From contig NZ_SMJX01000008.1 of NCBI RefSeq assembly GCF_004348535.1, positions 1 through 64,000 on the forward strand: 64,000 nucleotides of DNA, written 5' to 3'. Under the pieces are notes generated by a model, which saw nothing but the letters and a program-made list of their open reading frames with translations, ran no database searches and was not told the origin of the DNA. Source of the stretch: Actinomadura sp. KC216 (GTDB lineage Bacteria > Actinomycetota > Actinomycetes > Streptosporangiales > Streptosporangiaceae). The position numbers and the translations under genes are program-made. This document shows positions 32,936 to 51,929 of this stretch, piece by piece (the stretch's first letter is position 1; every line of letters begins with the position of its first letter).

Positions 32936-33604
32936 TTAAGCAGTGAGAGCGTATTTGATGCGCCCGCCCGCCCATTCGGCGATGTTCGAGGGGACGGCAT
33001 TGCCAGTGAGTAGCCCACCTGGTGTGGCACCGTGGGGGACTTTGTCCCGGTCGGCCTTGGGAAACCGGGTGACGAATTTCCAGCTGTCAGGGAACCGTTG
33101 GGCGGAGGCTTTTTCGTGGGTGGTGAACATTCGCACCCGGCAGCCGTCGATGGTCCGGTCGCCACCTGGCTGGACCAGCATGTGGTGGGTGCCCGCGGCG
33201 GTGATCGTGGCGACCGGGCCGTCCAGCGATTCCGACAGTTTGTGCCGCCGCAGGATCGCCACGAAGGGGCGGCCGTCCCAGCGGGTCAGGCCGTGCCGGA
33301 TCCGGGCTCGGGTGGCGGGAGCATACGGTCCGCGCCGGTGCCCGTCGGCGACCAGCCGCATCGGCAGCGACCAGTCGATTCTCGGGGCCATCGTGGTCGT
33401 GGCCGGTTCGACCCGGCCATGCCCGGCCGGGCAGAGGTAGTAGTAAGCGCCGTGCCTGCCGGTGCCGGTGTCGTAGGCGCCGACCAGGTGGCCAGCGATC
33501 CTGGTCGCGGTCGGTTTCCAGCACCGCACGCCCTGCACACGCGGCACCTCGCTGCGGGGCGCACCTCCAGGTCGACTTCGATACCTCGCCTGGCCAGCAC
33601 GGTG
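32936..33604 (-). pseudogene. C-terminal part of a cytosine-C5 DNA methyltransferase
   Basis: It holds the target-recognition and final motifs: GVRCWKPTATRIAGH, IDWSLPMRLV, PFVAILRRHKLSESLDGPVA, TITAAGTHHMLV, RFPDSWKFV and the motif X block GNAVPSNIAEW. Just inside the element junction the frame reads VTVLARRGIEVDLEVRPAAR and joins the N-terminal part at 38879 in frame when the 33605-38878 element is removed. A further single-base shift near 33530 separates this from the rest of the fragment. It is inactive as it stands. Confidence 0.85.
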
Positions 33605-33623
33605 TTATCTGGACACTCTTGCC
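33605..33623 (+). repeat. Left inverted end of the recombinase element
   Basis: TTATCTGGACACTCTTGCC; 15 of 19 positions match the right end read on the opposite strand, with the outer ten identical. Confidence 0.75.
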
Positions 33624-33690
33624 TTGTGCGCTGTTCAGGAGCCGGTGACACCTCCCGGTCTTGCCCTGGTGGGTGTACTACGTTCCGCCC

Positions 33691-34824
33691 ATGCGTGTTG
33701 TGAAGGTTGTCGGTCCAGAGCCGGGTGAGCCGAATGTCGTCCTGGTGGACGAGGACGGCGCTGAGGTAGTCGAGGTGTCGGAGTTCCTTCGAACGTTGAC
33801 GGTGCGGCGGTACTCGCCGAACACCGTGCGCGCCTATGCCTACGACCTGCGCCGATTGATGCTGTTCCTCGACGAGCGCGGGCTGGTTCTTGGCGAGTTC
33901 ACACCAGCTCGGGCCGTGGACTTCCTCGCAACTTTGCGGCGAACGCCGTCCAGGCGTCGTGCTCAGCGGCTGGACTTGGCGGTCACGGTGGACGATGGCC
34001 GGCTGCTGTCGCCGCGGACCTGCAACCGCATCCTGGGCGCGGTCTCCTCGTTCTACGAGTATCTGATCACTATCGAACGTTACAGCGGACCGGATAACCC
34101 GATCACCCAGCGCACAGACCACGCAGCGGCGCGGGTGCCGGGCCGGTGGAAGCCGCCGCTCTTGACGTCGCGCAGCCAAAGGCCGGTCCGGCGGACGCTG
34201 CGGGTCAAGACCACCGACCCCTTGCCCCGGCCGATCGGGGACGAGACCTACCGCGCGCTGATCAAGGCGATGCGCACGCGGCGGGACCGGGCCATGCTCG
34301 AACTCATGCACGAGGGCGGCCTTCGCCCCGGCGAGGTGCTGGGCCTGCGGCTGGAGGACATCTCCTACGGTCGATGCCGCGTCACGATCCGCTGGCGCGA
34401 GGACCATCCACGCGGAGCGCGCCAGAAATCCCGCCGCGAACGCGTCGTGGACCTGTTGGAAGGCCGGGCCTTGCCCGCCCTCAACGACTACGTGCTGCGC
34501 GAACGCCCGCAGGATGCCGAGACCACCCTGATATTCCTAGTCGGCGGCCGCGGTCTTCGCCACTGCGAACCCCTCAGCTACGACGGTCTGGTCCGCATGT
34601 TCGCCCGGGCGGCCGAGCGTGCCGGAGTCAGAGACGCCTGGCTGACCCCCCACAGCCTCCGGCACACCCACGCCACCCGCATGTTCGAGGGCGGCATGCG
34701 TGAGCTGACCCTGATGACCCGGCTCGGACACGCCAGCCCCGACTCCACCAAGATCTACACACGAGTCGGGGCCCCGGAAGTCCTCGCCGATTACCAGCGG
34801 GCCGTCGAGGGAGAGAAAACGTGA
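33691..34824 (+). CDS. Tyrosine recombinase (short partner)
   Basis: 377 residues from ATG 33691 (MRVVKVVG). An N-terminal SAM-like core-binding domain (NTVRAYAYDLRRLMLFLDER) is followed by the catalytic domain with Arg in GLRPGEV, HSLRHTHATR, RLGHAS and the nucleophile Tyr in IYTRV. All catalytic residues are present. Its stop overlaps the GTG of the next gene (GTGA), so both recombinases are made together. They presumably carry out integration and excision of this element as a pair. Confidence 0.92.
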   Translation: MRVVKVVGPEPGEPNVVLVDEDGAEVVEVSEFLRTLTVRRYSPNTVRAYAYDLRRLMLFLDERGLVLGEFTPARAVDFLATLRRTPSRRRAQRLDLAVTVDDGRLLSPRTCNRILGAVSSFYEYLITIERYSGPDNPITQRTDHAAARVPGRWKPPLLTSRSQRPVRRTLRVKTTDPLPRPIGDETYRALIKAMRTRRDRAMLELMHEGGLRPGEVLGLRLEDISYGRCRVTIRWREDHPRGARQKSRRERVVDLLEGRALPALNDYVLRERPQDAETTLIFLVGGRGLRHCEPLSYDGLVRMFARAAERAGVRDAWLTPHSLRHTHATRMFEGGMRELTLMTRLGHASPDSTKIYTRVGAPEVLADYQRAVEGEKT

Positions 34825-36908
34825 CCCACCTGCGTGCGCTCTCATCAGGCAGCCCCGGCCACGAGTTCGTGCCGTCGCACTGCCCGCAGGAGGAGTACAC
34901 GGCCTTCCTGGTCAACCCCGACCTGGGGTCGGAGTATCGCCGCACCCGCCTGCTTCGGGGCTATCGGCGGTTCGTCGCCCATTACCCGGACCTGGGGGCC
35001 TGGCAGCACCGTCCGCTCATCGAGCGGATCGGCTGGCGCAACAATGAGGTGCAGAGCCGACGCAGCGCCCCGGATGAGGGCTTCGACGTCACGACCGGTT
35101 GGATCAACTTCAACGCCCGGCAGTACCTGTTCTATCTGGGGTTCACCGGACGGCTGCGGCTGGACTGGGGCTGGTTGCTCGGCGTCGGCGTGCTCAAGCC
35201 TTGGGGCATCGCCGAGGCCCTCGGCCTGCCGCTGGTCGCGCAGACCGACGCGCTCCTCGCCCGCGCCATCGAGCTGGGCTTGGTTATGAAGAACTGTCGG
35301 CAACGGGTCCACTGGACGATCGCTCGGCTGGTCCTGCATCGCGGCGATCCGAACCTGTCGGCGCTCACACTCGACGACATCGAGGAACTACGGGAAGTGC
35401 TCCGCACGATCGACACGATCCCACAGATCTGGGACGTTCTCAGCGAGCAGAAGCTGCACCGCGCCCAAAAGAACTGGCGAACCATGGTCTTCCAGACCGG
35501 CGTGGTCTTGTTCCACGCCGGAGTGATCGACCAACTCCCCCAGCGACTGCCCACCAAGGAACGGCTGCCGCTCAGCACCCTGCCCCGGGTCCTGCCGATC
35601 ATAGAGCGCTACATCGCTGAACGATTGCTGTTCGACCGGCCCGCCTCCGTCGAGCACGCCCGGCAAGCGTTCCGGCGCCTGTCGGCCTGGCTCGCCCAGG
35701 AAAGGCCCACTGTCGTCAGCCTCGCCGAACTCAACCGTGCTGACCTGCTGGACTTCCTGACCTGGTTGCAGCGACAACGCAAGATCAAGCACCCCGACGA
35801 AGAACTCTCCCTGAGCTATCGGCGCTCGATCGCCTGGCAGATCACCGCGTTCTTCCGCTACGCCTCGCAAGCCGAGTGGAGGAACGTCCCCGTCCGGCCA
35901 CCGCTCACCACCGGAGATGTTCCTCGCGGGACCTTCAGCGTTCCCCGCTACATTCCCACGCACGAGCTCGACCCGCTGATGGAGCACATCCGGCAACTGG
36001 AGTGCCCGCTGCAACGATGCGCCCTGCTGGTCGCCAGATGGAGCGGCGCCCGGCGCACCGAGATCCGCAAGCTGCACCTTGACTGCCTCGACGCCTATCC
36101 CGACGGCACGCCACGCCTGCGGCTGGCAGCGGGCAAGTCCCGCAAGGAACGCACCGTCCCGATCCACCAAGAGGCCGCCGACGCGATCGAAACCCTCATC
36201 GCGATCCGCCAGCAGCAACCCGACCGAGGTGTCTACGACCCCGAACTCGGGCGCCCGGTCCGCCGCCTGTTCCTCAACCACGGACGGCTGGCCAGTAACG
36301 ACTACCTGTTCGCCGACCCGCTCCAGCACGTCTGCGCCGAAGCCGGCCTCCTCGACGAGCAGGGCAAGGCGCAGGTCCACCCGCACCGCTTCCGGCACAC
36401 CCTCGGCACCCAACTCGCCGAGAAAGGCGCCAAGACCCTGACCATCATGAAGGTCCTCGGGCACGTCAGCGCCAACATGTCGATGATCTACGCCCACATC
36501 TCCGACCCGGTCGTCCTCGCCGACTACCAGGCCGTTCTCCAGCCGGGTGCGATCCTAGCCGGCCCGCAAGCCGACGCGATCCGCGCCGGCCGCCTCGACC
36601 AGGAGGCCCTCGACTGGCTGAAGACGAACTTCTACAAGACCGAGCTTGAACTCGGACACTGCCTGCGGCTCCCGCAGGAAGGCCCCTGCGAGTGCGACAT
36701 CTACCTGACCTGCCCCAAGTTCCTCACCACGACCCAGTACGCCCCTCGGCTCCGCGAACGCCTCTGCCTTGAAGAACAGCTCACCGAAGACGCCGCAACC
36801 CGCGGCTGGGACCGGGAAGTCGAACGCCACCAACGCACCGCCGAACGGCTCCGTGCGCTCCTGGACGACCTCGGCGAGCCTATCGATATCCCGCCGCCAG
36901 AGGCTTGA
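34821..36908 (+). CDS. Large tyrosine recombinase with a Cys-rich C-terminus (long partner)
   Basis: 695 residues, about twice the usual length. A unique N-terminal ~290 residues is followed by a core-binding domain (VEHARQAFRRLSAWLAQERP) and catalytic domain: Arg in SGARRTEIRKL, HRFRHTLGTQL, VLGHVSANMS, Tyr in MIYAH. The tail after the catalytic domain has a cysteine cluster (LGHCLRLPQEGPCECDIYLTC shortened here to its Cys residues C-x8-C-x-C-x5-C), likely a zinc site. The 808-residue recombinase at 43109 has a comparable tail. Confidence 0.9.
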   Translation: MTHLRALSSGSPGHEFVPSHCPQEEYTAFLVNPDLGSEYRRTRLLRGYRRFVAHYPDLGAWQHRPLIERIGWRNNEVQSRRSAPDEGFDVTTGWINFNARQYLFYLGFTGRLRLDWGWLLGVGVLKPWGIAEALGLPLVAQTDALLARAIELGLVMKNCRQRVHWTIARLVLHRGDPNLSALTLDDIEELREVLRTIDTIPQIWDVLSEQKLHRAQKNWRTMVFQTGVVLFHAGVIDQLPQRLPTKERLPLSTLPRVLPIIERYIAERLLFDRPASVEHARQAFRRLSAWLAQERPTVVSLAELNRADLLDFLTWLQRQRKIKHPDEELSLSYRRSIAWQITAFFRYASQAEWRNVPVRPPLTTGDVPRGTFSVPRYIPTHELDPLMEHIRQLECPLQRCALLVARWSGARRTEIRKLHLDCLDAYPDGTPRLRLAAGKSRKERTVPIHQEAADAIETLIAIRQQQPDRGVYDPELGRPVRRLFLNHGRLASNDYLFADPLQHVCAEAGLLDEQGKAQVHPHRFRHTLGTQLAEKGAKTLTIMKVLGHVSANMSMIYAHISDPVVLADYQAVLQPGAILAGPQADAIRAGRLDQEALDWLKTNFYKTELELGHCLRLPQEGPCECDIYLTCPKFLTTTQYAPRLRERLCLEEQLTEDAATRGWDREVERHQRTAERLRALLDDLGEPIDIPPPEA

Positions 36909-37197
36909 GCCGCAGCGAAGGGCAACAGCGGCGCCACTCCATCGCCCCGGCAGATCGACGACAGAATCACCAAGAGCATCAACGGCTTGAACGCCTTAGT
37001 GGATGCCTGCAAGTAACGGCCGGCTTCCTCGCCCTCACGCTCCTCGATCTCTCCGGCGTCCTCCCGGTTTTCAAAGAATTAGCAGGTCGGAGGGGTATGT
37101 CGAGATGCTCGATAATTTGTCGGAGGTTCCCGCTAGAGTAACGACACTTGGGCGACGCGGCCCATGGTGGTTGGAGAGCCAGAGGAGTCAAGGCGCG
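36909..37197. other. Stretch between the recombinases and TnpB
   Basis: No supported gene. It should include the left end of the TnpB unit; I see GTCGAGATGCTCGA near 37098 as a short palindrome but no clear boundary. Confidence 0.35.
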
Positions 37198-38784
37198 GTG
37201 ACAGGGGCAACGGTGTTCCGGCGGGCGTACCGCTACCGGCTTGATCCTACGCCTCGTCAGGCACGTATGTTCCTGCGAAGTTGCGGTGCGCGACGCTATG
37301 CCCACAACTGGGCCGTCGACATGATCTACTCCGCTTTCGATGAACGGCGTGTCCGAACCGCCGCCGGTATCCCAGTCGAGGATCTGCCGAGGGCATTAAC
37401 CTTCGCTACCTTGAACAATGCCTTCAACGATTGGAAAAAGGGTCGCACCGGTCCGGAGTCGCGACTGCCGAAGTGGTGGCTTGACCGGCATCCCGATTTG
37501 GAAGCACCCGAGTGGCTGGCAGACCATTCGTGGGACGTCTACATGTGGGCAATCTACGAGGTCTACGACGGATTGCACCGGTGGTTCAATTCCCGCACTG
37601 GTAAACACGGCGGAAAACCGCTCGGTTTCCTCAGTTTTAAATCGAAGAGACGCGACAGCCCTCGGTTCAAGGTCGCGGCCCGTCCTAACGGGGCCCGGCC
37701 GATCGACTATCGACACGTCCGACTCCCCAAGATCGGGGCCGTGCACACACGTGACCACATGAAGCGGCTGGTACGGGGGATCGAAGCGGGACGGGTAAAA
37801 CTCAAACAGGCCACCATTAGGCAAGACCGTCGCGGAGCATGGTGGATCGCTTTCAGCGTGGAGGAGTCCGTTGCTACGCCCGTGCAGCCTACTCGCCGAA
37901 TGCGTCACAATGGTGCCGTTGCGATCGACATCGGCGTGAAGGCTTTGGCCGTCCTGTCGTTCGGTGAAACGGTACTTAACCCACGGTTTATGGACAGTGC
38001 CGACCGTGCATTGCGGCAAGCGCAGCGGGAATTGGCCCGCCGTGTGAAAGGATCGAAGGGGCACGCGGCAGCGCAACGGCGGCACGCTCGACTACACGTC
38101 AAGGTTGCGGGGCTTCGACGCAACTACCTTCACCACCTCACCTCGGTGCTCGCTCAGTCATTCGCGCACATCGCGGTCGAAGACCTCAACGTCAAAGGCA
38201 TGGTCGCCAGCGCTCGTGGCACCAGAGCGCAACCAGGCCGTCAGGTCCGGCAGAAGGCTGGGCTGAACCGGCGCATACATGACGCCGCCTTCGCCGAGAT
38301 TAGGAGACAACTGGACTATAAAACCCGCTGGTATGGCGGGACCATGGCGGCAGTCGACCGGTTCGCACCGACGTCGAAAATCTGCTCCGAGTGTGGATGG
38401 CGAAACCCAAACCTTACGCTCTCGGATCGGACATTCCACTGCGGCGGGTGCGGTATCAGTACCGATCGAGACCTCAATGCCGCCCGGAACATTGCCCGGC
38501 TTGCGTCCGAGCACACCGACCACGCCTTCGCTCAAGGCGTCCAAGCCGTGAGGTTGCGTAAGCCCTTACCTGGCCACGGCCAGATGAGGCACTTCCATCG
38601 AGCGGCGAACCTCGCACCACGACACGGCCACAGCACGATCGAGGCTGCCCTTCCGGGCTTGGTGGGTCAGACGAGGAGACCGGGATCGCAAGGCCCCGGC
38701 GTCCCTGATCCCCACAAACCATCGTCTTGGCAACAAGGCGCTCAGGTTCAAGGGCCGCAATTGCAATCAGGGACGGCACACTAG
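37198..38784 (+). CDS. tnpB: TnpB-family RNA-guided nuclease of an IS200/IS605-type unit
   Basis: 528 residues from GTG 37198; the frame is open further upstream but FRRAYRYRLDPTPRQARMF is the usual TnpB start. The RuvC set is complete: Asp in AIDIGVKALAV, Glu in VEDLNVKGM, Asp in DRDLNAARN. The zinc finger CSECGW ... CGGCG lies between the last two. No tnpA is near. The last ~90 residues are rich in Gly/Pro/Gln and are likely the overlap with the guide-RNA (omega RNA) gene at the 3' end rather than functional protein. Family knowledge: TnpB cuts DNA next to a short motif under RNA guidance and helps elements persist. Confidence 0.92.
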   Translation: MTGATVFRRAYRYRLDPTPRQARMFLRSCGARRYAHNWAVDMIYSAFDERRVRTAAGIPVEDLPRALTFATLNNAFNDWKKGRTGPESRLPKWWLDRHPDLEAPEWLADHSWDVYMWAIYEVYDGLHRWFNSRTGKHGGKPLGFLSFKSKRRDSPRFKVAARPNGARPIDYRHVRLPKIGAVHTRDHMKRLVRGIEAGRVKLKQATIRQDRRGAWWIAFSVEESVATPVQPTRRMRHNGAVAIDIGVKALAVLSFGETVLNPRFMDSADRALRQAQRELARRVKGSKGHAAAQRRHARLHVKVAGLRRNYLHHLTSVLAQSFAHIAVEDLNVKGMVASARGTRAQPGRQVRQKAGLNRRIHDAAFAEIRRQLDYKTRWYGGTMAAVDRFAPTSKICSECGWRNPNLTLSDRTFHCGGCGISTDRDLNAARNIARLASEHTDHAFAQGVQAVRLRKPLPGHGQMRHFHRAANLAPRHGHSTIEAALPGLVGQTRRPGSQGPGVPDPHKPSSWQQGAQVQGPQLQSGTAH

Positions 38785-38859
38785 ACGGAGGTTGCCCCCG
38801 ACACGCCCGAGTAGGTAGTCGGGAAGAAATTCTTCCCGACTACCACCAGACCCATGTGG
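38785..38859 (+). ncRNA. Possible 3' end of a TnpB guide RNA with a 31-base palindrome
   Basis: A perfect palindrome (15-base arms GGTAGTCGGGAAGAA around one A) lies at 38814-38844, 30 bp after tnpB. TnpB guide RNAs end at the right end of the unit, so this hairpin could be the end structure or a terminator. This is inference from position. Confidence 0.4.
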
Positions 38860-38878
38860 CCCAAAAGCGTCCAGATAA
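38860..38878 (-). repeat. Right inverted end of the recombinase element
   Basis: On the minus strand it reads TTATCTGGACGCTTTTGGG, matching the left end at 33605. Confidence 0.75.
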
Positions 38879-39279
38879 ACGAACACCAGGCGCTCACGCA
38901 CTTGCGGGGCGGCGGGGTTGCCGGGCGAGGAGACGTGCGCGGCGTTGACCGAGACGATCTGGGCGGTGTAGTTCATCGCCTCGAAGACCTTTAGCCACGG
39001 CTCGAACAGGTCCCAGCGTGCGAACCGCAGGACGTTCTCCCCGACGATCACGGCCGGACGGTGGATCTCGGCGTAGCGGATCAGGCACCACGCCGTCGCC
39101 CGCGTCGCCGCCCACGGCTGCTGGCGCTGTTGGCGGACGGCGTTACCGCCGGCAGGTGCCGCCTCAGTACAGATCGGGCTGGCGACCAGCACATCGGCGC
39201 CCGGCACGCTCAGCATGTCCAGCCGCGAGACGTCCTCAACAATGCCGTGCACCGGCCGGTTGAGCAGAACTGTTTGCAC
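38879..39279 (-). pseudogene. N-terminal part of the cytosine-C5 DNA methyltransferase (motif I missing)
   Basis: It reads VHGIVEDVSRLDMLSVPGAD, then VLVASPICTEAAPAGG (the catalytic Pro-Cys loop; here ICTE as in one actinomycete group), VIVGENVLRFARW (the ENV motif) and PQVRERLVFV, after which the element begins. The upstream frame to about 39320 has no SAM-binding motif I (FxGxGG), so the true N-terminus is lost or displaced. GTG 39279 is only the first start codon available. Confidence 0.82.
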
Positions 39280-39325
39280 TGCTTCTCTGCACCTGTCAAG
39301 CCGGTTGCGGGCATTGGTGCGGGAC

Positions 39326-39451
39326 CTAGTGATGAGTGATCCACCAGCAGGTGAGGTGGATGAGGGCCGAGCCGGTGGCTGTGGCGGCGCCGCGGATGAC
39401 GGCCTGGATGGCGATGTCGGTGAGGTGGCGCAGATAGGCGCTGCGGGTCAT
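39326..39451 (-). CDS. Small hypothetical peptide
   Basis: 41 residues (MTRSAYLRHLTDIAIQAV, then GSALIHLTCWW near the end), ATG 39451 with GAGGGA upstream. Its second half is hydrophobic enough for one membrane helix. It is the gene just upstream of the methyltransferase fragment and may have been in one operon with it. Confidence 0.5.
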   Translation of the reverse strand: MTRSAYLRHLTDIAIQAVIRGAATATGSALIHLTCWWITHH

Positions 39452-39644
39452 ATCGGGATCCCTCGGTGAGCGGCCGCTGCGGCAGTGCGTTGGCCTGGTG
39501 CTGCCGATTGACCTGTTCCGGCACGTTTTCCGGTTGCCCTGTCAGCTGGACCGGTAGCGGGGCAGGCTGGTGACCTCGCCCTTTCGGGTGCGTGCGGGGT
39601 TTCCGAAAGGGTTCCGGGCCGGATCCGGTGGAAGGAGGCTGGCG

Positions 39645-42600
39645 GTGGAGGAGCCGCTAGGAGCGACGAGGGCATGGGCGGAGGCGTTGCGGGCGCTGTG
39701 GGAGGCGGCGGGTCGGCCGACCGGTGCAGCGATCACACGCCAGGCCGGTAAGCAGAAGCCGCGGCCGTTGAAGGTGACCAATCAGTCGTGGAGCGACTGG
39801 CGCAACGGCAAGAACGTGCCTTCCGATCCGGTTATCGCGCGGTGGCTGGTGGCGCATCTTAAAGGCCAGGCCCGCCAGAAGACGCCGTCGTTTGTCGCCG
39901 AACCGGACAGTTGGTGGGAGCAGCTCTGGCGGCAGGCACGAGCCGAGCGTCGGCGCCTGGGCGGCCGTCCTCCGCTAGCGCATCCGGGCAGATCTCGCTC
40001 GTCGGCTCCGTCGGCGGAGGGCCGAAGGGTCCGGGTCGGAGTGATTCCGCGGCCGGCAGATTGTTTCCAGGACCGTGAAGTCTTCGAACGGGTGCAGGCG
40101 ATAGCAGGCGTGGGCGGGACTCTGGTGCTGGCGCAAGCGGGGTTCGGAGCGGAGGCCCCGGCGGAGACGCAGGTGCTGGCAGGGATGGGCGGGGTTGGTA
40201 AGACCCAGTTGGCCGCCGCTTACGCTCGTCAGGCATGGCGGCAGGGCGTCGAGGTCCTGGTGTGGGTGAACGCCGCCACTCGCGACGGCGTGGTGTCCGC
40301 CTATGCCGACGCGGCCTTGCGTCTGAACCTGCCGATGGTCGGCCGGGACGATCCCGAGCAGAGGGCGCGGGAGTTGCTGACCTGGGCGGAGGACACTGAC
40401 CGGCGCTGGCTGATCGTCCTGGATGACGTGCACCATCCGGGCGACCTCCAAGGATGGTGGCCGCCCGCGGCGGCTTCGCCAGCGGGGCAAGTCCTGGTCA
40501 CCACTCGGCTGCGGGATGCGGCCTTGGCCGGGGCGGATCGCCGCATCCTCGACGTCGGCACCTTCACTCGCGCCGAAGCCCGTTCCTATCTGACTGCAAA
40601 GCTCGGCGCCCAAGGCCCGGTCGCCGATATGGACGGGCTCGCCGCCGACCTTGGGTTTTTGCCGCTGGCGCTGGCGCAGGCGGCGGCCTACGTCCGCAAC
40701 GCCGACATCACGTGCGCGGCTTACCGGCACCGGCTGGCGACTCGGCTGCTGGCCCACTCGGTCCCCGGCCGGGACTACCTGCCCGACGACCATCAGCGGA
40801 TCGTGACCGCGGCATGGGAACTGTCCATCGACCACGCCGATCACGCCGACCCGGCTCTCCCTGTCGGGCTCGCGCGGCAGGTGCTGTATCTGGCCAGTGT
40901 CCTGGACCCGGCCGGCATTCCCCAAGCGGTACTGGCCGGCCCGCCGGCTCTGGACTTCCTGACTGCCCAGCAGCGGCCCAGTTCCCCAGCCACCAGGCTT
41001 ATCGCAGGTGGAGTGGGAGTGGATGCGGACATGGTGGATGCGGCGTTGCGGGTGCTGCACCGCCACAGTCTCCTCGACCACAACCGGGTGACCACCCACC
41101 GGGAGATCCGTATCCATCAGCTCGTTCAACGCGCCACCCGCGAGAACTTGCTTACGCAGCCCGATCTTGGCCCAGCGCCGCTTGCTGAGATCGCGCGCAC
41201 TGCGGCCGACGCGTTACTGCGCTTGTGGCCACAGATCGAACGCGACCAGGCCACCCAGCAGCTCGGTCAGATCCTGCGCGCCAACACCACCGCACTACAC
41301 GACTGCACCAGTAGCGCCCTCTACAGTCCGGACTCCGGTGCACATGCCGTGCTGTTCCAGGCTGCCACTAGCCTCGCCAAGACCGGTCGGACCACCGCCG
41401 CTGTCACCGCGAACACCGACCTGCACGCCAACTGCCTGCATCACCTGGGGCCCGACCACCCCGACACCCTGACCACGCGCAGCAATCTAGCGATTCTGCA
41501 GGGCGTTGTGGGTGATGCCGTTGGTGCGGTCGCCGCCTTTGAGGAGTTGCTCGCTCACCAGCTACGGGTCCTGGAGCCCGACCACCCCGACACCCTGACA
41601 ACCCGCCATCGGCTGGCCCTATGGCGAGGCAACGCAGGTGATGACGTCGGCGCGGTCGCCGCCTTCGAGGAGTTGCTTGCCGATCGGACACGAATGCTGG
41701 GCGCCGACCACCCCGACACCCTCATCACCCGTTCCAACGTGACTCGATGGCGGTACGAGGCGGGCCACGTCTCGGGCTCAGCCACCTACTCCACGTTGGA
41801 GGAACTACTAACTGACTTCTTACGAGTGCTTGGTCCCGACCATCGAGCTACTTTGAGTGTTCGCCACCTCATGGCATGGATGCGAGACGGGATGGGCGAC
41901 GTTGACGGGGCGGCCGCTGAGTACGAGAAGTTGCTGACCGAATATCTACGGGTTCTAGGTCCCGACCACAATCGCACTCTGATCACGCGTCGCAACCTGG
42001 CACGATTGCGCGTTCTTGCGGGTGACGCCACCGGGGCCGTCACCGCCTTCATTGAAGTACTCGCCGACCGGCTGCGAGTGAATGGATCCGACCACCCCGA
42101 CACGCTCTTCGTCCGTCACGATGTGGCCTGGGCGCAGGGTGAGGCGGGAGACGCCGTCGCCGCGGTCACCGCCTTCGAGCAGGTGCTCGCTGATCAGCTG
42201 CGAGTGCTGGGTCCTGATCACCCCCACACCCAGTGGACTCGCGGCGCCCTGGCGTACTGGCGGGGTGAGGCGGGAGACGCCGTCGGCGCGGCCACCGCGT
42301 ACACCGAGTTGCTCGCCAACCGGTTGCGAATGCTTGGACGCGACCACCCAGACACGCTCTCCGCGCGTCACGAGGTGGCTTGGTGGCGAGGTGAGGCGGG
42401 AGACGCCGACGGGGCGGTCACTGCCTTCGAGCAGTTGCTAGCCGATCGGACACGAGTGCTGGGCCCCGACCACCCAGACACTCTCGCCAACCGCCATGAC
42501 TTGGCGTGCTGGCGAGGTGAGGCGGGGGACGCCGCCGGTGCTGCCACCGCATTGCAGGAGTTGCTGACCAAGGTCGGCGAAGTGCTGGGGCCTGACCACC

Positions 42601-42791
42601 CCGACACTCTCCTAACGCGCGGCAATCTGGCCTGGTGGCATGGCGAAACGGGAAACGCCGTGGCTGCGGTTACTGCATTCGAGCAATTGCTGACCGACCG
42701 TATACGAGTGCTGGGCTCTGACGACCCACAAACTCTTTCCACCCGCGACGACCTAGCGCACTGGCGAAAGAAGGCGGAAGCTGCAGAATAG
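39645..42791 (+). CDS. STAND NTPase: NB-ARC with 11 TPR-type repeats
   Basis: 1048 residues. GTG 39645 is chosen (GAAGGAGG 6 bases upstream) rather than 39570. Residues 10-105 are a helical, Trp-rich module (WAEALRALWEAAG, SWSDWRNGKNVPS) that may bind DNA or act as effector. The NB-ARC part has Walker A GMGGVGKT (180-187) and Walker B LIVLDDV (256-262). Residues ~580-1040 are eleven TPR repeats of about 42 residues, each with a DHPDTL-like core. The plan equals that of STAND sensors, many of which defend against phage in bacteria. No separate nuclease or protease domain is visible, so the effector is unclear. Confidence 0.9.
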   Translation: MEEPLGATRAWAEALRALWEAAGRPTGAAITRQAGKQKPRPLKVTNQSWSDWRNGKNVPSDPVIARWLVAHLKGQARQKTPSFVAEPDSWWEQLWRQARAERRRLGGRPPLAHPGRSRSSAPSAEGRRVRVGVIPRPADCFQDREVFERVQAIAGVGGTLVLAQAGFGAEAPAETQVLAGMGGVGKTQLAAAYARQAWRQGVEVLVWVNAATRDGVVSAYADAALRLNLPMVGRDDPEQRARELLTWAEDTDRRWLIVLDDVHHPGDLQGWWPPAAASPAGQVLVTTRLRDAALAGADRRILDVGTFTRAEARSYLTAKLGAQGPVADMDGLAADLGFLPLALAQAAAYVRNADITCAAYRHRLATRLLAHSVPGRDYLPDDHQRIVTAAWELSIDHADHADPALPVGLARQVLYLASVLDPAGIPQAVLAGPPALDFLTAQQRPSSPATRLIAGGVGVDADMVDAALRVLHRHSLLDHNRVTTHREIRIHQLVQRATRENLLTQPDLGPAPLAEIARTAADALLRLWPQIERDQATQQLGQILRANTTALHDCTSSALYSPDSGAHAVLFQAATSLAKTGRTTAAVTANTDLHANCLHHLGPDHPDTLTTRSNLAILQGVVGDAVGAVAAFEELLAHQLRVLEPDHPDTLTTRHRLALWRGNAGDDVGAVAAFEELLADRTRMLGADHPDTLITRSNVTRWRYEAGHVSGSATYSTLEELLTDFLRVLGPDHRATLSVRHLMAWMRDGMGDVDGAAAEYEKLLTEYLRVLGPDHNRTLITRRNLARLRVLAGDATGAVTAFIEVLADRLRVNGSDHPDTLFVRHDVAWAQGEAGDAVAAVTAFEQVLADQLRVLGPDHPHTQWTRGALAYWRGEAGDAVGAATAYTELLANRLRMLGRDHPDTLSARHEVAWWRGEAGDADGAVTAFEQLLADRTRVLGPDHPDTLANRHDLACWRGEAGDAAGAATALQELLTKVGEVLGPDHPDTLLTRGNLAWWHGETGNAVAAVTAFEQLLTDRIRVLGSDDPQTLSTRDDLAHWRKKAEAAE

Positions 42792-42799
42792 AGATCTGT

Positions 42800-42902
42800 C
42801 ATGCTCGGCCAGCAGCGTTCCGGCTACGACGGGCTTGGCGTTGTCGGCGTCGATCAGCACCGCGAGCTTCGCGATGTTCTCGCCAGCGTTGTCAGCGGCC
42901 AT
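42800..42902 (-). pseudogene. N-terminal fragment of a NYN-domain protein
   Basis: ATG 42902 with GGAG upstream starts MAADNAGENIAKLAVLIDAD, then NAKPVVAGTLLAE, the first strand and acidic site (LIDADN) of LabA-like NYN ribonucleases. After LLAE the homology stops where the STAND gene ends on the other strand. The rest of the gene is absent from the window. Confidence 0.65.
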
Positions 42903-43108
42903 GCGCTCGGGCTCCAAGTGGTGGAAGCAGTCGGTTCCCTAGGCGGCAGGGCGGCGAGACGACTCTGAAAAGGGATGGTCGGATCGGCGGTAGTGTTGAT
43001 CTTTGTTTGTCGAGGAGTTCAATCAACGTCACTTTCTTGATCAGTGCGCGGTTCGGCCCGGCAGGACAGACTCGCATCCCTGGGCCCGACCTAGACAATC
43101 GTTCCCTC
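42903..43108. other. Gap, possible left boundary of the second recombinase pair
   Basis: No gene. I searched by eye for inverted ends matching the 46740-46800 side and found only the short common word GACTGC, which is not convincing. Confidence 0.35.
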
Positions 43109-45535
43109 TCAGGCTCGTTCACTGGGAGCCTCCCGGCGTTTGGGTATGCCGATGTCAACCACTGGGAGGCGGCTGAGCCGTAGTGCTTCCTTACGTTTGC
43201 CCTTGAGGAAGCTAAGAGTCAAGTCGATGCCATCTATTTCACCGAGCCAGTTTTCGGTTTCGGCGCGTGCCCGCTTGGCGAGGAGATCGGTTTCGATTTC
43301 AGCCAGCCGATCAAGCATCCTTGGGTCGACGCGGAGCATTGGGCATCGGATGCAAGCGTGCTCATGAGAGCATGGGGTGGAGTAGGGGCGTCCGCAGTTG
43401 CCCAGTTCAAGCCTGCGTTTGTCAAAATGCTCCTCGAACTGGGTCCACTCGATGTCAGTGACCGGCCGGTACTCCTCCTGGGGCCGCATTGCGCGGCGAC
43501 GGGCAAGGTGGCTTTGGTAATGGCGGACGACTTCCTCCTCGAAGACAGCGACGTACCCGCGAGTAGTCTCTAGATTCAGGTGTCCTAGCAATGCCGCACC
43601 GATGTGGATGGGCAGCCCGTTGTTGACCAGCTCGGTCGCGAACAGGCGACGAAAGTCGTGCGGTGCAACCCTCAGGTCGGCAAAGCCTTCGTCGTATTCG
43701 GCGAGCTGTCGGCAAACCCGGTTAAGCATCCCGCGAACCGCTCCGGCGGCCATGACCTCGTTGCGCTGCCCGATGTGGCGTTGGAACAGAAAGGGCTGAG
43801 GCTCGGTGGTAACGCGCTCGTGCTCGTCCCAGCGGATGGCCAGGGGAACTGTCGAGCACCCCAAGGTCAAACGTCTAATAATGCACGCCAGTACGTGGAA
43901 CAACTCGGCCGACACGGGGACGACGCGCTCGCGATCAGCTTTGGAAGGTGCGATGACCAGCAGCGCGATGACCTCCCCGTTGGGACGCTGGTATTGGCGG
44001 ATGCTCAGCTGAGACAGCTCCAGCAGTTCCTCGATTCGCACTCCGGTGTGCCGCAGAGTCTCCACGACCGCCCATTGCCAGAACGTGGTGTCCTCGGTGA
44101 GGGTGGCGTTGATGGCCTTGCCGGTGGCCAGGTCGAGGAACCGAACGTTAGCGGCGCCATGCATGCGGGCCCGGCGATGGTCGGCGGGGGTGAACAGGCG
44201 CCGGTAGGCGCGGGAGCCGACCGCGACGATCTCCCCAGGTAGGGTGTCGGCGGCGGCCAGCAGGCTGCTCATGGTGCGGTGGGCTTGCTCGACATGACGC
44301 GCCAGGACCGGAAGGAGCGGTTGGAGGCGTCGGGTCTGATCGGCGATGCGTTCCCGGTTGCGGCGCCGGCGCTTGGCGCCGGCACGGATCTCGCGGTGCG
44401 GGATCGGGCACGGGGCGGACCACTGTGCCCACCGCTCGGGCTCGTGCGCCGACCACGCCTGGATGTCGTAGTAGAAGGCGCGCACGGTGACCAGCACGCT
44501 GTCCACGTCGCGGCGGGGCCTTCCGCTGTCGCGAGTCTGGATCGCCTCATGCCACTGCTGGTAGATGCTCTCGGACAGCCGCAGGTCTCGCTGGTCAGGA
44601 TTGATGTTCTCGATTTTCTTCCAGAAGACGTGGCTCAGCGTGTTGGTCAGAGTTTTCAGCGTGCTGTAGTCCATGTCGTGGCTGCGCCGTTCAAGGTATT
44701 GCACGAGCAGATCGCTGACGCCTTCGTTGCGCAGATCGTGCCGCTCGACCAATTGGCGGCAGGTCAGCTTCGGAGAGCGCAGCACGGCGCGCAGTGTGCT
44801 GGGCACCGACGGCAGAAAGTGCCCCATCTCGTGCATCACTTGCCAAGCCAGGTGCCCGACATAGGTGGAGTAGCTGTAGGCGGCCAGGCCGCCGTCGCGA
44901 GTGATGCGCGCGTGGTGCAGGAACGCCTCAGGTGTCAGATCAGCGAACGCGATGCCCTGGGTGGTCAGCGCGGCCGACACATCGAACACGGCGCGGCGCT
45001 TCCAGTGCCGGGCGACGTCGGCGGCTTCGACGGCGGCGAAGAATCCCTCCAGCACATCGTCCTGCTGAGCGGTGCGGAACGCCTTGGGGTAATCGGTGAA
45101 GTGGTTCGAGCGAAACGCCTCCAGGGTGGGCTGCAAGATCCGCAGGCAGAACAGGGCCTCCAGCCCCTGGGTCATCCAGGCCCGAGGCCCGTCACCGACG
45201 GCCAGGTCGCGGACCGGCCTGGCGCGGGCGTTCAGACCGCTGGACTCGAACCGCTCCTGCCAGGTCTCGCCCGGCTGGGTCGCGAGACGGCCAAGGAGTC
45301 GACGCAGCCCAGAGGCACGGCTGCGGGTACGGGAGGGAGCGTCCGTGGACCGCCAGGTCACCGTGGCGACCTGGCAAATCTCCTCGATGGTGGCGGCGTC
45401 GAGGATGCCGCGCGGGCGCGGAGGAACCGCTGGCGCTGGTGCCGGTGCGGGAGTGATCGCGGTGCGGGTGAACTTTGTCTTGGGGATTTCGGGTCGGGCC
45501 GGTCGCAGCTTCGGCCGGGACAGCGTTTTAGACAC
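43109..45535 (-). CDS. Large tyrosine recombinase with a Cys-rich C-terminus (long partner, second pair)
   Basis: 808 residues. The catalytic residues lie in HTGVRIEELLELS (Arg), PHDFRRLFATEL (His/Arg), LLGHLNLE (His) and TRGYVAVF (Tyr). The C-terminal tail has LGNCGRP, then CSHEHACIRCPMLR, a likely zinc site, comparable to the tail of the 695-residue recombinase at 34821. It overlaps the upstream recombinase by 8 bases, so the pair is translationally coupled, the same order (short then long) as the first pair. Confidence 0.9.
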   Translation of the reverse strand: MSKTLSRPKLRPARPEIPKTKFTRTAITPAPAPAPAVPPRPRGILDAATIEEICQVATVTWRSTDAPSRTRSRASGLRRLLGRLATQPGETWQERFESSGLNARARPVRDLAVGDGPRAWMTQGLEALFCLRILQPTLEAFRSNHFTDYPKAFRTAQQDDVLEGFFAAVEAADVARHWKRRAVFDVSAALTTQGIAFADLTPEAFLHHARITRDGGLAAYSYSTYVGHLAWQVMHEMGHFLPSVPSTLRAVLRSPKLTCRQLVERHDLRNEGVSDLLVQYLERRSHDMDYSTLKTLTNTLSHVFWKKIENINPDQRDLRLSESIYQQWHEAIQTRDSGRPRRDVDSVLVTVRAFYYDIQAWSAHEPERWAQWSAPCPIPHREIRAGAKRRRRNRERIADQTRRLQPLLPVLARHVEQAHRTMSSLLAAADTLPGEIVAVGSRAYRRLFTPADHRRARMHGAANVRFLDLATGKAINATLTEDTTFWQWAVVETLRHTGVRIEELLELSQLSIRQYQRPNGEVIALLVIAPSKADRERVVPVSAELFHVLACIIRRLTLGCSTVPLAIRWDEHERVTTEPQPFLFQRHIGQRNEVMAAGAVRGMLNRVCRQLAEYDEGFADLRVAPHDFRRLFATELVNNGLPIHIGAALLGHLNLETTRGYVAVFEEEVVRHYQSHLARRRAMRPQEEYRPVTDIEWTQFEEHFDKRRLELGNCGRPYSTPCSHEHACIRCPMLRVDPRMLDRLAEIETDLLAKRARAETENWLGEIDGIDLTLSFLKGKRKEALRLSRLPVVDIGIPKRREAPSERA

Positions 45536-46724
45536 CGAACACCGCCTTGATGTCGTCGGCGTCGTACCCGGACGTGAAGCTTGGTGTCGTAGCGGGGCGG
45601 GCGTAGTGCTCGGCGAGCTTGTCGAACAGTTCCTCAGCCCGCGGTTGCAGGTACCGCTCGGTGGTGGACAACTGGCGGTGACGCAGCACCGTCTGGACCT
45701 CCACGAGTGTCATCCGCGGGTCGGCGGCCATCCGGGCGGCGGCGGTGTGTCGTAGGTCGTGCAGGGTCCAGTTCGTGCCGAGCCGCTCGTCGGCACGCTG
45801 GATCACGCGGCGCATCGCCCAATAGCTCAAGGGCCGCACCGGGCCACGCAGCGTCCGCCAGACCATCTCGTCACTGCCGACGGCGCCGTGCCCGTCGAAG
45901 TACCAGGCCAAGTAGCGGAACGCCTGCGGTGATGCGGGCAGTGGATCAAGTGTCCGAGTGCCCTTGGAGATCACCCAGATCCGCTGGCCAGCCCAGTCGA
46001 CGTGGCCGCCGCGCAGCCCGAGCAACTCGCTGGCGCGGGCTCCGCTAGAGACGTAGAACGCCAGCAGCGCTCTATCACGATGGGTGCCCATCGCGGCGAA
46101 CAGTTCCTCCCACAGCGGATCGGGGATCGAACGCGGAAGACGGTCGGCGGTCTTCTGCCGCAGCGGTGCCCGCCGTATGACTCGGTTCGGCTCGATCGGG
46201 CTGCGGTGCGCTACCAGCATCCGCCGTTCGCTGGCCTCAGGCACTGGATTGATCAGCGGTCCCCGCCCGAAGTGCAGATGGAAGGTGTAGAACGCCGACA
46301 GGACCGACAGGGCATGGTTGATTGTCGAGGGCGCATACCCCGCCCGCAGCACTGGCTTGCCGGTCTTCGGGTTGACCGAGCCCGCCGGTTCGGTATCCGG
46401 CCGGCTCCGGCGCCGCTGCGGGTTGGAGGCCGAGCGCAGCCATCCGACCAGCAACTCAACCTCCGTCCGCGTTGCCCTGTCCCACCCCACCTCGACCAAC
46501 GCCAGCATGCGCCACCAGCGCAGCAAGTCGTGGCCGTACGAGCGGCAGGTCAGCGGGCTTGCGTCACCGAGCACGAGTTCCCGTAGGAAGACGGTGAAGT
46601 ACTCGATTGGGTCGCTGGCACCGTCGACCACCACGAACGGCAACAGGTCGTCTTCGGTTGCCCGTACTTGCCCGACACGAGGCAACTCAGCCCGCCCCTC
46701 CAACAGCGACCGTCGGATGTCCAC
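45528..46724 (-). CDS. Tyrosine recombinase (short partner, second pair)
   Basis: 398 residues; GTG 46724 is preferred because GGGAGG lies 8 bases before it. The core-binding domain (SPLTCRSYGHDLLRWWRML) is followed by SSGARASELLGLR (Arg), LHDLRHTAAARM (His/Arg), VLRHRQLS (His) and TERYLQP (Tyr). The set is complete. Together with the 808-residue enzyme it forms a second recombinase pair, oriented toward the first. Confidence 0.92.
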   Translation of the reverse strand: MDIRRSLLEGRAELPRVGQVRATEDDLLPFVVVDGASDPIEYFTVFLRELVLGDASPLTCRSYGHDLLRWWRMLALVEVGWDRATRTEVELLVGWLRSASNPQRRRSRPDTEPAGSVNPKTGKPVLRAGYAPSTINHALSVLSAFYTFHLHFGRGPLINPVPEASERRMLVAHRSPIEPNRVIRRAPLRQKTADRLPRSIPDPLWEELFAAMGTHRDRALLAFYVSSGARASELLGLRGGHVDWAGQRIWVISKGTRTLDPLPASPQAFRYLAWYFDGHGAVGSDEMVWRTLRGPVRPLSYWAMRRVIQRADERLGTNWTLHDLRHTAAARMAADPRMTLVEVQTVLRHRQLSTTERYLQPRAEELFDKLAEHYARPATTPSFTSGYDADDIKAVFGV

Positions 46725-46782
46725 CTGCACAACCTCCCACACAGACAGCCCACGGAACCGGGGCCGGAGATAGTGCAGTCAA

Positions 46783-46962
46783 CTAGACGGCCTGGAGATG
46801 GTTGACCGCCGCCAGCGTGTCGTAACCGGCCAGCGCGAACCCGGCCAGATCACCTCCACCACCGGCCATCAGGTGCACCGATGTCAGCACGCCGTCCTCC
46901 CCCGAGTACACAAAAGGCTCCGCACCGGTATCCCGCAGCGCGAATTGGTTGGGTCTGTCATC
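46783..46962 (-). pseudogene. C-terminal remnant of an unknown gene
   Basis: A clean frame reads ALRDTGAEPFVYSGEDGVLT, then HLMAGGGGDLAGFALAGYDT and stops at 46783. An in-frame stop lies just upstream at 46963, and no start codon fits. It abuts the second recombinase pair and may be what is left of a gene hit by it. Confidence 0.5.
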
Positions 46963-47444: not shown

Positions 47445-47621
47445 TCAGGGTCTCCACGGTTGGGTGCCGTGTTCGCCGTCGTGGGTGGCGGTGATGTCGT
47501 TGGGGGTGTGATCGGTGATGGGCTGCCAGCCGGCCGGTTCGCACGACAGCCACAGCAGCCCGATCTTGACCAGGTCTCCGACGCTGAGTTCCCTCGCAGG
47601 TCTGAGCGTGTTGTTGATCAC
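47445..47621 (-). CDS. Small hypothetical protein
   Basis: 58 residues: ELSVGDLVKIGLLWLSCEPA, then GWQPITDHTPNDI and a His/Thr-rich end. GTG 47621 has no strong ribosome site, so the call rests on protein-like composition. Confidence 0.45.
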   Translation of the reverse strand: MINNTLRPARELSVGDLVKIGLLWLSCEPAGWQPITDHTPNDITATHDGEHGTQPWRP

Positions 47622-48236
47622 TGTTAGTGATCGGTCATCTACAGTTCTCGCGCCGGGCTGGAGATCCCGCTGGGCACGACAAGCTGCTGGATGGGGGTCC
47701 CCCGGCGTTGGTGAGCGGGAGCGGCGTTGGAGATAGAGCGGGAGTGGCCGATCTTGATCGATCCTGCGTGTCGAGTGGATTCACCCGCTGGCCGCGTCCT
47801 TCGAGCTGTCGCAGTTTGCGTTTCTTGCCCGGGTCGCGGCAGTCGTATGTGAAGGAGAACTCCGGCTGGGTTCACCTTCATGTGGCAGCGCGGCAGATAC
47901 CGATGAGGCTGGCTGCTTGTCGGCACGCGGACCGCCGAGCGCCCGCGATGCCTCACAATGAATGTAAGTTCTCCTCGGTTGTTAATGAAATGACTATTGG
48001 AAAGCTCTCGATCATCCGGTCTGTCTGGGATCAGCAGGGGGTGCGGTTGAGCCCGTTCTCGTCCACTTTTCGAGTGGCAGATAAGTGAGTTTGGCCGCTG
48101 CTTCGCCGGGTAGTTGGGCGACACCGGCCCCAAGTACAGAAGCAGAGCGAAGGTTCGGAGATCTCTTAGGTGCCCTCCATGACGAACCAGGGCCTGCCGG
48201 GTCCAGGGATGCCTATCGCACATCGATCCTCCTCCG
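47622..48236. other. Stretch without a supported gene
   Basis: A minus frame near 47850 reads EFSFTYDCRDPGKKRKLRQL and looks coding for ~30 residues, but is cut by stops and has no start; it may be a remnant. The region upstream of the TDO-SDR gene shows no typical ribosome site. Confidence 0.35.
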
Positions 48237-49856: not shown

Positions 49857-49905
49857 CCACGAAACCGCATCTCCAGAGCCACCCTCCGGCAAAAAGGTGG
49901 ACGCG

Positions 49906-51411: not shown

Positions 51412-51677
51412 CGAGTGGATGCTTCACCAGCGACGCCATGGTGATCTGATGTGTCCCGGGTTGCGTGGTGTCGGGAGGACGCCCGTCGTTGAGTCCGGGC
51501 CCGCCAGCGCCCCGGCCGAGCGCGGTGACAAATGAGCAGTTGATCGCGATGCCGATGGATTGAATCCGCTCAGAGGGCCTGCACGTGACCAGGGACAGCT
51601 TCGCCTGGCCGGGCAGCATGTTCTCCGGGAAGCACACAGCAGGTCACCGACCCACAACACAACCAGTCGCAACACAA

Positions 51678-51929
51678 CTAACTTCTGGGGAAGCTGAGCG
51701 AGCGAAGGCGGCGGCGGTAATAGTCCGCGCTCAGTTCGTGGAACTCGTTGCCGATCTCGAACGCTGTCTCAGCGAAGAGAACCGGCTCGGTGGCTTCGTT
51801 GGCTTCCATTGGAAATTCGAACACCTTCACCACAGGATGGCCTTGCTGGTAGCCGTCGAAACCTAATGGTCTCCCCGCTGCATCCTTCGATACGTTATGG
51901 AAAACCTCGACCGTCACGGTGACATTCAC
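51678..51929 (-). CDS. Small hypothetical protein
   Basis: 83 residues: VTVEVFHNVSKDAAGRPLGF, then HPVVKVFEFPMEA, then FAETAFEIGNEFHELSADYY. It is acidic and beta-rich, with a Tyr/Arg tail. No family recognised. Confidence 0.65.
   Translation of the reverse strand: MNVTVTVEVFHNVSKDAAGRPLGFDGYQQGHPVVKVFEFPMEANEATEPVLFAETAFEIGNEFHELSADYYRRRLRSLSFPRS

What the first reader, a model, noticed from the sequence alone, without database searches (positions are those of the whole stretch)
33605..38878. Element of two coupled tyrosine recombinases plus TnpB, precisely inserted in a DNA methyltransferase gene
The ends are imperfect inverted repeats starting TTATCTGGAC, no target repeat is seen, and removing exactly this segment joins ERLVFV to TVLARRGIEV in frame. 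A recombinase pair (short plus double-length) with a TnpB passenger and defined ends is not an element type I can name; it is related in idea to recombinase-in-trio elements but has only two enzymes.
Basis: partly seen in the sequence, partly recalled or inferred. Interest (0 to 1): 0.75.

Follow-up and report, generated by a model that had tools for sequence, protein, structure and literature searches.

The report
Two-recombinase transposon inside methyltransferase gene
A small jumping element, related to the known transposon Tn554 but with only two of its three enzymes, has inserted exactly into one conserved spot of a DNA-methylating gene, and several of its relatives each sit at one conserved spot of one gene family, often genes of plasmids and other transposons.

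Summary
Three same-genus genomes carry the methyltransferase without the insert. The element is 5,274 bp between inverted ends matching at 15 of 17 bp, plus a 6-bp core exchange (empty site ACGAAC; left junction ACGGTG, right junction ACGAAC). It is nameable: a Tn554-related element with one normal and one double-length tyrosine recombinase and no TnpC. Nineteen relatives with both ends found, in actinobacteria and alphaproteobacteria, have closely similar ends. In the window's clade all 7 copies whose right flank could be read sit at the same C5-methyltransferase motif; relatives sit in transglycosylase, Tn3 transposase, resolvase, ParB-like and DUF6915 genes, clustered on the tree by target. 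In two direct empty-site comparisons the target's own 6 bp is at the recombinase-distal end, opposite to reports for Tn554-type and SE elements. TnpB occurs only in this copy among 20 complete elements; its probable guide-RNA scaffold ends about 175 bp before the element's end, so it does not appear aimed at the methyltransferase. A second recombinase-pair element sits in the same gene. New variant of a known kind.

The parts
33599..33604 (.). Left junction 6-bp core ACGGTG (foreign; the empty site has ACGAAC here)
33605..33621 (+). Left inverted end TTATCTGGACACTCTTG
   Evidence: 15/17 match to the right end; similar ends in relatives
33691..34824 (+). Recombinase A, tyrosine recombinase of ordinary size (about 377 aa; ORF open from 33661); HxxR and LGH...Y motifs present
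   Evidence: PF00589 3.6e-27; motifs; start inferred from where relatives begin to align
34821..36908 (+). Recombinase B, double-length tyrosine recombinase, 695 aa; R, HxxR and LGH...Y motifs present, conserved C-terminal Cys region
   Evidence: PF00589 2e-23; alignment; motifs
37198..38784 (+). TnpB-type RNA-guided nuclease gene (passenger); D, E, D and CxxC motifs found
38600..38703 (+). Match to Rfam Transposase-2 RNA, probable guide-RNA scaffold of the TnpB (below the curated cut-off: 37.1 against 42.7 bits)
   Evidence: the 7 copies found in same-genus genomes lie at the 3' end of TnpB genes; the genome-wide search did not list this one
38814..38844 (.). Palindrome GGTAGTCGGGAAGAA-A-TTCTTCCCGACTACC, role unknown (terminator or inner binding site)
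   Evidence: self-match; sequence; fold
38862..38878 (-). Right inverted end (reads TTATCTGGACGCTTTTG on the minus strand)
38879..38884 (.). Right junction 6-bp core ACGAAC, identical to the empty site of L032 and L033
38885..39282 (-). Middle piece of the interrupted C5 methyltransferase gene
   Evidence: PF00145; 95% identical to L032
32936..33598 (-). C-terminal piece of the same methyltransferase gene, out of frame through a 10-bp difference from L032
39283..46787 (.). Second insert in the same gene: another short (45528-46742) and long (43109-45535) recombinase pair plus an NB-ARC/TPR protein (39570-42791)
   Evidence: absent from L032, L033 and L034; Pfam

Best explanation
It is an autonomous Tn554-related transposon that has no TnpC. 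Recombinases A and B bind the inverted TTATCTGGAC ends, join them into a circle with a 6-bp spacer taken from one junction, and insert the circle into a 6-bp core at conserved codons of a C5-cytosine methyltransferase gene (the RERxxFV-like motif). The target's own core ends up at the right, the core brought from the previous site at the left. Shown from sequence: the ends, the insertion, the 6-bp exchange, the clade-wide target. Inferred: that A and B are the enzymes, the circle, strand order, the origin of the left core, and current activity. TnpB is cargo.
For: Empty sites: L032, L033, L034 for the window and plasmid L091 for relative L045 (empty GGCG-GCGAGG-AAGG, left junction ACGAAG, right GCGAGG). 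Similar ends: both ends found in 20 of 34 loci, the window included. Target: the window clade has 8 loci; 7 gave a right end and all 7 flanks show the same methyltransferase motif, L049 gave none; PF00145 hit in 6 of 6 tested, the window through L032. Targets follow the recombinase tree: 6 changes, the least possible, against 16.0 in shuffles, 11 rows of unread or unassigned target left out. Left cores fit codons of the same gene family in the Rpf-type clade (my reading); in L076/L077 the right core of one (CATCGA) is the left core of the other at the same gene position in opposite orientation, elements 96.5% alike. In 10 of 20 complete elements at most 245 bp lie between the end of the B match and the right end, so no third gene is needed there.
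Against: No circle, excision or transposition was observed; the element is single-copy in its genome. Ends in relatives were sought by near-match to the window's ends, so their similarity is partly by selection; 8 of 34 loci gave no left end and 14 of 34 not both (truncated, at a contig edge, or not found). Some of the 20 are near-duplicates (L026/L071, L076/L077). The window clade's branch has moderate support (85/77). Homology to more distant (Tn554-type) long recombinases is weak (24-31%) and often only over the C-terminal half. That the left core comes from a previous site was not shown directly.
Confidence: 0.86

Rival explanations
1. TnpB is a working part: its guide comes from the methyltransferase flank, so it cuts empty sites and drives homing or retention of the element.
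For: TnpB keeps its catalytic and CxxC motifs and lies towards the element's right end. The Transposase-2 RNA match that argues against it is below the curated cut-off and was not listed for this genome in the genome-wide search.
Against: The probable guide-RNA scaffold ends at 38703, and in 5 of 7 same-genus TnpB copies the sequence they share runs only about 40 nt further (my reading), which would put the guide inside the element. None of the 19 other complete elements holds a TnpB at 1e-3.
Confidence: 0.06
2. An insertion by some other enzyme with a 3-bp duplication (ACG), the recombinases being bystanders.
For: ACG is present in both flanks of the window copy.
Against: In L045 against its empty site L091 the exchange is a clean 6-bp replacement without a duplication, and the 6-bp rule gives frames that run through the junction in L043, L044, L028, L029, L065, L074, L076 and L077. 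L044 has room for little besides A and B.
Confidence: 0.04
3. The element is already dead: a relic in a decayed gene that also took a second insert.
For: The methyltransferase has a further 10-bp difference and a second insert; single copy.
Against: Both recombinase frames are open with catalytic motifs, and both ends are present.
Confidence: 0.25

Closest known systems
Tn554 and the Tn554-related Tn552-II (Staphylococcus; PMC12486829 passages seen; PMC10214605 passages seen)
   Same: Short plus long tyrosine recombinase, imperfect inverted ends, gene-specific target, 6-7 bp core brought in, for Tn552-II through a circle shown by PCR.
   Different: They have tnpC. As I read the passages, the target's core is at the left, tnpA-proximal end and the brought-in core at the far end, the reverse of what is seen here. 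Long recombinases of that kind are 24-31% identical.
Actinobacterial Tn554-related transposons of Van Houdt 2012 (PMC3414803; outline with abstract, section 10 and passages seen)
   Same: Two adjacent recombinases, one abnormally long; one class (Famint 36/41) without TnpC.
   Different: In three of their TnpC-less records a long protein matches the window's SECOND insert over 718-799 residues at 36-37%, while this element's B finds there only pieces of 155-266 residues at 24-34%, or in pBD2 a longer 28% match that is probably the TnpC class. I did not check by name that the matched genes are the Famint 41 proteins. Section 10 gives no end sequences or target motifs for them.
Strand-biased circularizing integrative elements, SE (PMC10214605 passages)
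   Same: One ordinary and one large recombinase; 6-bp fingerprint and footprint.
   Different: SEs have four genes (IntA, Tfp, IntB, Srap) and put the attB core at the intA-proximal end.
RIT elements (PMC3414803 and PMC10214605 passages)
   Same: Terminal inverted repeats; tyrosine recombinases as the only enzymes.
   Different: Three recombinases of ordinary size.

Membership tests
Tn554 family | Adjacent short and long tyrosine recombinases | tested here: met
Tn554 family | Third gene tnpC | tested here: not met
   10 of 20 complete elements have at most 245 bp between the end of the B match and the right end; no profile search for TnpC was run on the cargo of the other 10. The 29-31%-identity loci looked at (L014, L016, L018, L023) do have a third ORF after the long gene (by eye)
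Tn554 family | No duplication; 6-7 bp core brought in | tested here: met
   (origin of the foreign core inferred)
Tn554 family | Target core at the tnpA-proximal end | tested here: not met
   Target core is at the A-distal end in both direct comparisons
Tn554 family | Sequence relation of the long recombinase to Tn554 TnpB | tested here: inconclusive
   24-31% identity to distant long recombinases of actinobacteria, enterococci and staphylococci, often over the C-terminal half; Tn554 itself not aligned
Van Houdt TnpC-less class (Famint 36/41) | Long recombinase of the same sequence family | tested here: not met
   in 3 of 3 records the window's second insert has a near full-length match, this element's B does not
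SE elements | Tfp and Srap genes | tested here: not met
   no room for them in the 10 of 20 complete elements with at most 245 bp after B
RIT elements | Three recombinases | tested here: not met
Circle-forming copy-out elements | Circular intermediate with spacer | not testable with these tools
   no reads or PCR

The most novel reading that the evidence does not exclude
A TnpC-less branch of Tn554-like transposons runs with inverted core polarity and evolves by clade-wise retargeting: each lineage's recombinase pair reads the DNA of one conserved protein motif, preferentially in genes that travel on plasmids, phages and other transposons (C5 methyltransferase, Tn3 transposase, resolvase, ParB, Rpf-type transglycosylase), so that the element rides other mobile DNA across species.
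Probability: 0.5. Interest if true: 0.72.

Novelty: new variant of a known kind. Interest (0 to 1): 0.58.

Why it matters
It gives defined ends, a target rule and a minimal two-gene form (3.35 kb, L044) for a group of transposons known so far mostly as recombinase annotations. It makes testable how a pair of tyrosine recombinases without TnpC picks a site, which end supplies the carried 6 bp, and how site choice changes between lineages. The different targets of related pairs (methyltransferase, transglycosylase, Tn3 transposase) are a natural experiment in recombinase retargeting.

Tried and rejected
Target duplication: rejected by L045/L091. Homing by TnpB: disfavoured. Identity with the Famint 36/41 class: rejected. 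Viral contigs: no match to B, from exact short patterns only. No near DNA match of the element on plasmids. Family search with the whole 528-aa TnpB: only the window itself among 298 genomes at 1e-120; the nearest relatives found are about 42% identical, too far to transfer its borders. Transposase-2 RNA was not seen beside four TnpB relatives of 41-42% identity. A class-wide search found a B relative at 1e-120 in only 1 genome besides the window's among 394. An empty-site search for L043 by genus did not run; plasmid homologues were used instead. L071 against L026 (element part 2142/2147 identical, flanks 144/160 and 152/160) is only suggestive of separate insertions, because the regions are homologous further out.

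Errors of mine, corrected: the TnpB query was out of frame (repeated). In one search the distances from B's stop to the right end are unsafe (L045 and L029 are plainly artefacts); one search measures from the end of the B match instead. In one search the script chose wrong frames for L042, L045, L050, L066 and L076; L042, L045 and L050 were then read from the flanks, L076, L066 by motif only.

Full report
WHAT IS THERE. The window is part of a 9.06-Mb assembly (G000, contig 656), by its relatives an actinomycete. On the plus strand lie recombinase A (to 34824), recombinase B (34821-36908) and a TnpB gene (likely 37198-38784). A and B both hit PF00589 and keep HxxR and LGH...Y motifs. The ends are TTATCTGGACACTCTTG and TTATCTGGACGCTTTTG as inverted repeats, alike at 15 of 17 positions.

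THE EMPTY SITE. A search of 345 genomes of the order with the methyltransferase piece found a match at 1e-20 in 11, the window's own included; three of them, of the same genus, are 93-96% identical (L032, L033, L034). Aligned to the window, L032 position 1507 meets window 33601 and position 1505 meets 38879, and likewise in L033; L034 gives the same junction on its other strand. The junctions read GGCCAGC-ACGGTG-TTATCTGGAC and GTCCAGATAA-ACGAAC-ACCAGG; the empty site reads GGCCAGC-ACGAAC-ACCAGG in L032 and L033, and L034 has ACGAAA as its core. So the insertion adds 5,274 bp plus a second 6-bp core, and the core of the right junction is the target's own. The window's methyltransferase also lacks 10 bp that L032 has, about 70 bp from the junction, so it is out of frame apart from the inserts.

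RELATIVES AND THEIR ENDS. A scan of genome contigs gave 13 loci, 9 of them 53-69% identical to B in the best segment and 4 at 22-25%. In plasmids 139 records match at 1e-20, 24 with at least 80% coverage, some of these 24 at only about 25% identity. In family genomes 18 of 298 match at 1e-40, the window's own included; in the class 2 of 394 at 1e-120, own included. In all, 34 loci with a B relative, the window included, were examined for ends (29, 5; the left end of L026 is). A left end was found in 26 of 34, both ends in 20 of 34. Of the 20, 19 have a left end of the form TTAYNTGGAC (L050 has TTCTCTGGAC); 14 have GTCCANRTAA on the right, and six have variants (GTTCGGATAA in four Pseudonocardia copies, GTCCGGATAA in L076 and L077). 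Because these were sought by near-match, conservation is partly by selection; the independent check is the target reading below. Some copies are near-duplicates (L026/L071, L076/L077; L046/L047 among the 34).

MINIMAL FORM AND CARGO. In 10 of 20 complete elements at most 245 bp lie between the end of the B match and the right end (L074, L044, L046, L081, L026, L071, L077, L076, L065, L029), too little for a gene the size of Tn554 tnpC (size recalled). In L044 (3,353 bp) A and B each match in one piece and fill nearly all of the element. The 29-31%-identity loci looked at (L014, L016, L018, L023) do have a third ORF after the long gene (by eye). Cargo differs: none to speak of in L044; a DUF6000 protein in L043 (PF19463) with a similar ORF in L045 (by eye); an APH-family phosphotransferase in L050 (PF01636); an ORF without Pfam match in L042; an efflux-type gene set in L080 (annotation). 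Only the window's copy of the 20 holds TnpB.

TARGETS. In the window's clade the right flanks of window, L042, L043, L044, L045, L048 and L050 all read, on the minus strand, as an RERxxFV-like motif of C5 methyltransferases; L049, the eighth locus of the clade, gave no ends. PF00145 was hit in 6 of 6 tested (the window through L032; L048 by motif only). That this is the motif usually numbered VIII is from recall. In the Pseudonocardia copies (L026, L027, L046, L071) the two flanks read ESGG...GNGY-x-G and GGLQF..., as in Rpf-type transglycosylases (recalled); 'transglycosylase family protein' is annotated at L026 and L027 and the L027 gene hits PF06737, ending at position 32 of 77 of the profile. 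L029 and L065 are in Tn3 transposase genes (PF01526), L074 in a resolvase (PF00239), L028 in a gene with a ParB_N domain (PF02195, not reaching the junction, though the frame does). L066, L067 and L081 read like Tn3 transposase by motif only. L076 is in a DUF6915 gene, the domain spanning the junction (PF21866); L077, L079 and L080 show the same motif. For the other loci of the 34 the target was not identified. On a maximum-likelihood tree of 36 B proteins the seven groups (six targets and the group with a third ORF) need 6 changes, the least possible (shuffled mean 16.0, as low in 0 of 200); 11 rows without a group are not counted. The methyltransferase group has support 85/77, the transglycosylase group 100/100, window plus L042 98/97; Tn3 targets need two changes.

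THE 6-BP CORE. A second direct empty site supports the rule: L091, a Streptomyces angustmyceticus plasmid 88.9% identical to 217 bp of L045's flank, reads GGGCCAGGCG-GCGAGG-AAGGTCC, while L045 has ACGAAG at the left and GCGAGG at the right. With the right core, reading frames run through the junction in L043, L044, L028, L029, L065 and L074 and in L076 and L077; the targets of L042, L045, L050 and perhaps L066 are frame-broken elsewhere. The left core is foreign but fits the same gene family: in the transglycosylase clade CACCAT, CACCCT and CACCTT would encode the residue before the Gly-Gly pair (my reading). L076 and L077 are 3269/3389 identical and lie at the same point of the same gene in opposite orientations; the right core of L076 (CATCGA) is the left core of L077. 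They need not be donor and offspring, and a common core could recur by chance. In L081 the two cores are identical, so it tells nothing. SE elements are reported to put the attB core at the intA-proximal end and the carried core at the far end, and Tn552-II has att on the left and the brought-in core on the right (passages only). Here it is the reverse in 2 of 2 direct comparisons.

SECOND ELEMENT. The same methyltransferase gene carries a second insert, 39283-46787, absent from L032, L033 and L034, with a 404-aa and an 808-aa recombinase and an NB-ARC/TPR protein. Relatives of this second pair lie near the first pair also in L028, L026/L071 and (long protein only) L030. The second long recombinase, not the first, has near full-length matches in 3 of 3 tested records that Van Houdt 2012 lists with a TnpC-less pair.

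TNPB. A sub-threshold match to Rfam Transposase-2 RNA covers 38600-38703 (37.1 bits, cut-off 42.7, E 2.6e-5). Against it: the genome-wide search with the same family over 26 genomes did not list the window's copy, and four TnpB relatives of 41-42% identity show none. The 7 copies that search found, in 4 of 26 genomes, lie at the 3' end of TnpB genes, and in 5 of the 7 the shared sequence ends about 40 nt after the RNA (my reading). By analogy the guide would start inside the element, well before 38878. So TnpB is most likely a nested passenger; this is inference.

WHAT IS KNOWN AND WHAT IS NEW. The kind is known (Tn554-related, short plus long recombinase). In the listings of my searches of the held open-access library and the passages I opened I saw no report of these ends, of methyltransferase targeting by such elements, or of the inverted core polarity; most subscription papers are not held. 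I therefore call it a new variant of a known kind.

Noticed in passing
window 39283-46787: A second, different short-plus-long recombinase element with an NB-ARC/TPR cargo protein sits in the same methyltransferase gene; relatives of its long recombinase lie near the first pair in L026/L071, L028 and L030 as well.
   Followed up: partly
window about 47599-51690: A third insert relative to L032, with a pyridoxal-dependent decarboxylase and a short-chain dehydrogenase, ends TTCCC...GGGAA and GCTGAG at both borders; no transposase noticed, though its smaller ORFs were not searched.
   Followed up: no
L076 and L077: Two 96.5% identical elements in the same plasmid gene (DUF6915) in opposite orientations, the right core of one equal to the left core of the other.
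   Followed up: yes
L080 8740-13518: A relative with 4.8 kb between B and its right end, annotated as a TetR-type regulator, cytochrome b domain protein and efflux components.
   Followed up: no
L081: A relative whose two junction cores are identical (CGCTCG), unlike the other 19 complete elements.
   Followed up: no
window 36909-37017: A short open stretch between B and TnpB ending ...QIDDRITKSINGLNALVDACK that may be the remnant of an older cargo gene.
   Followed up: no
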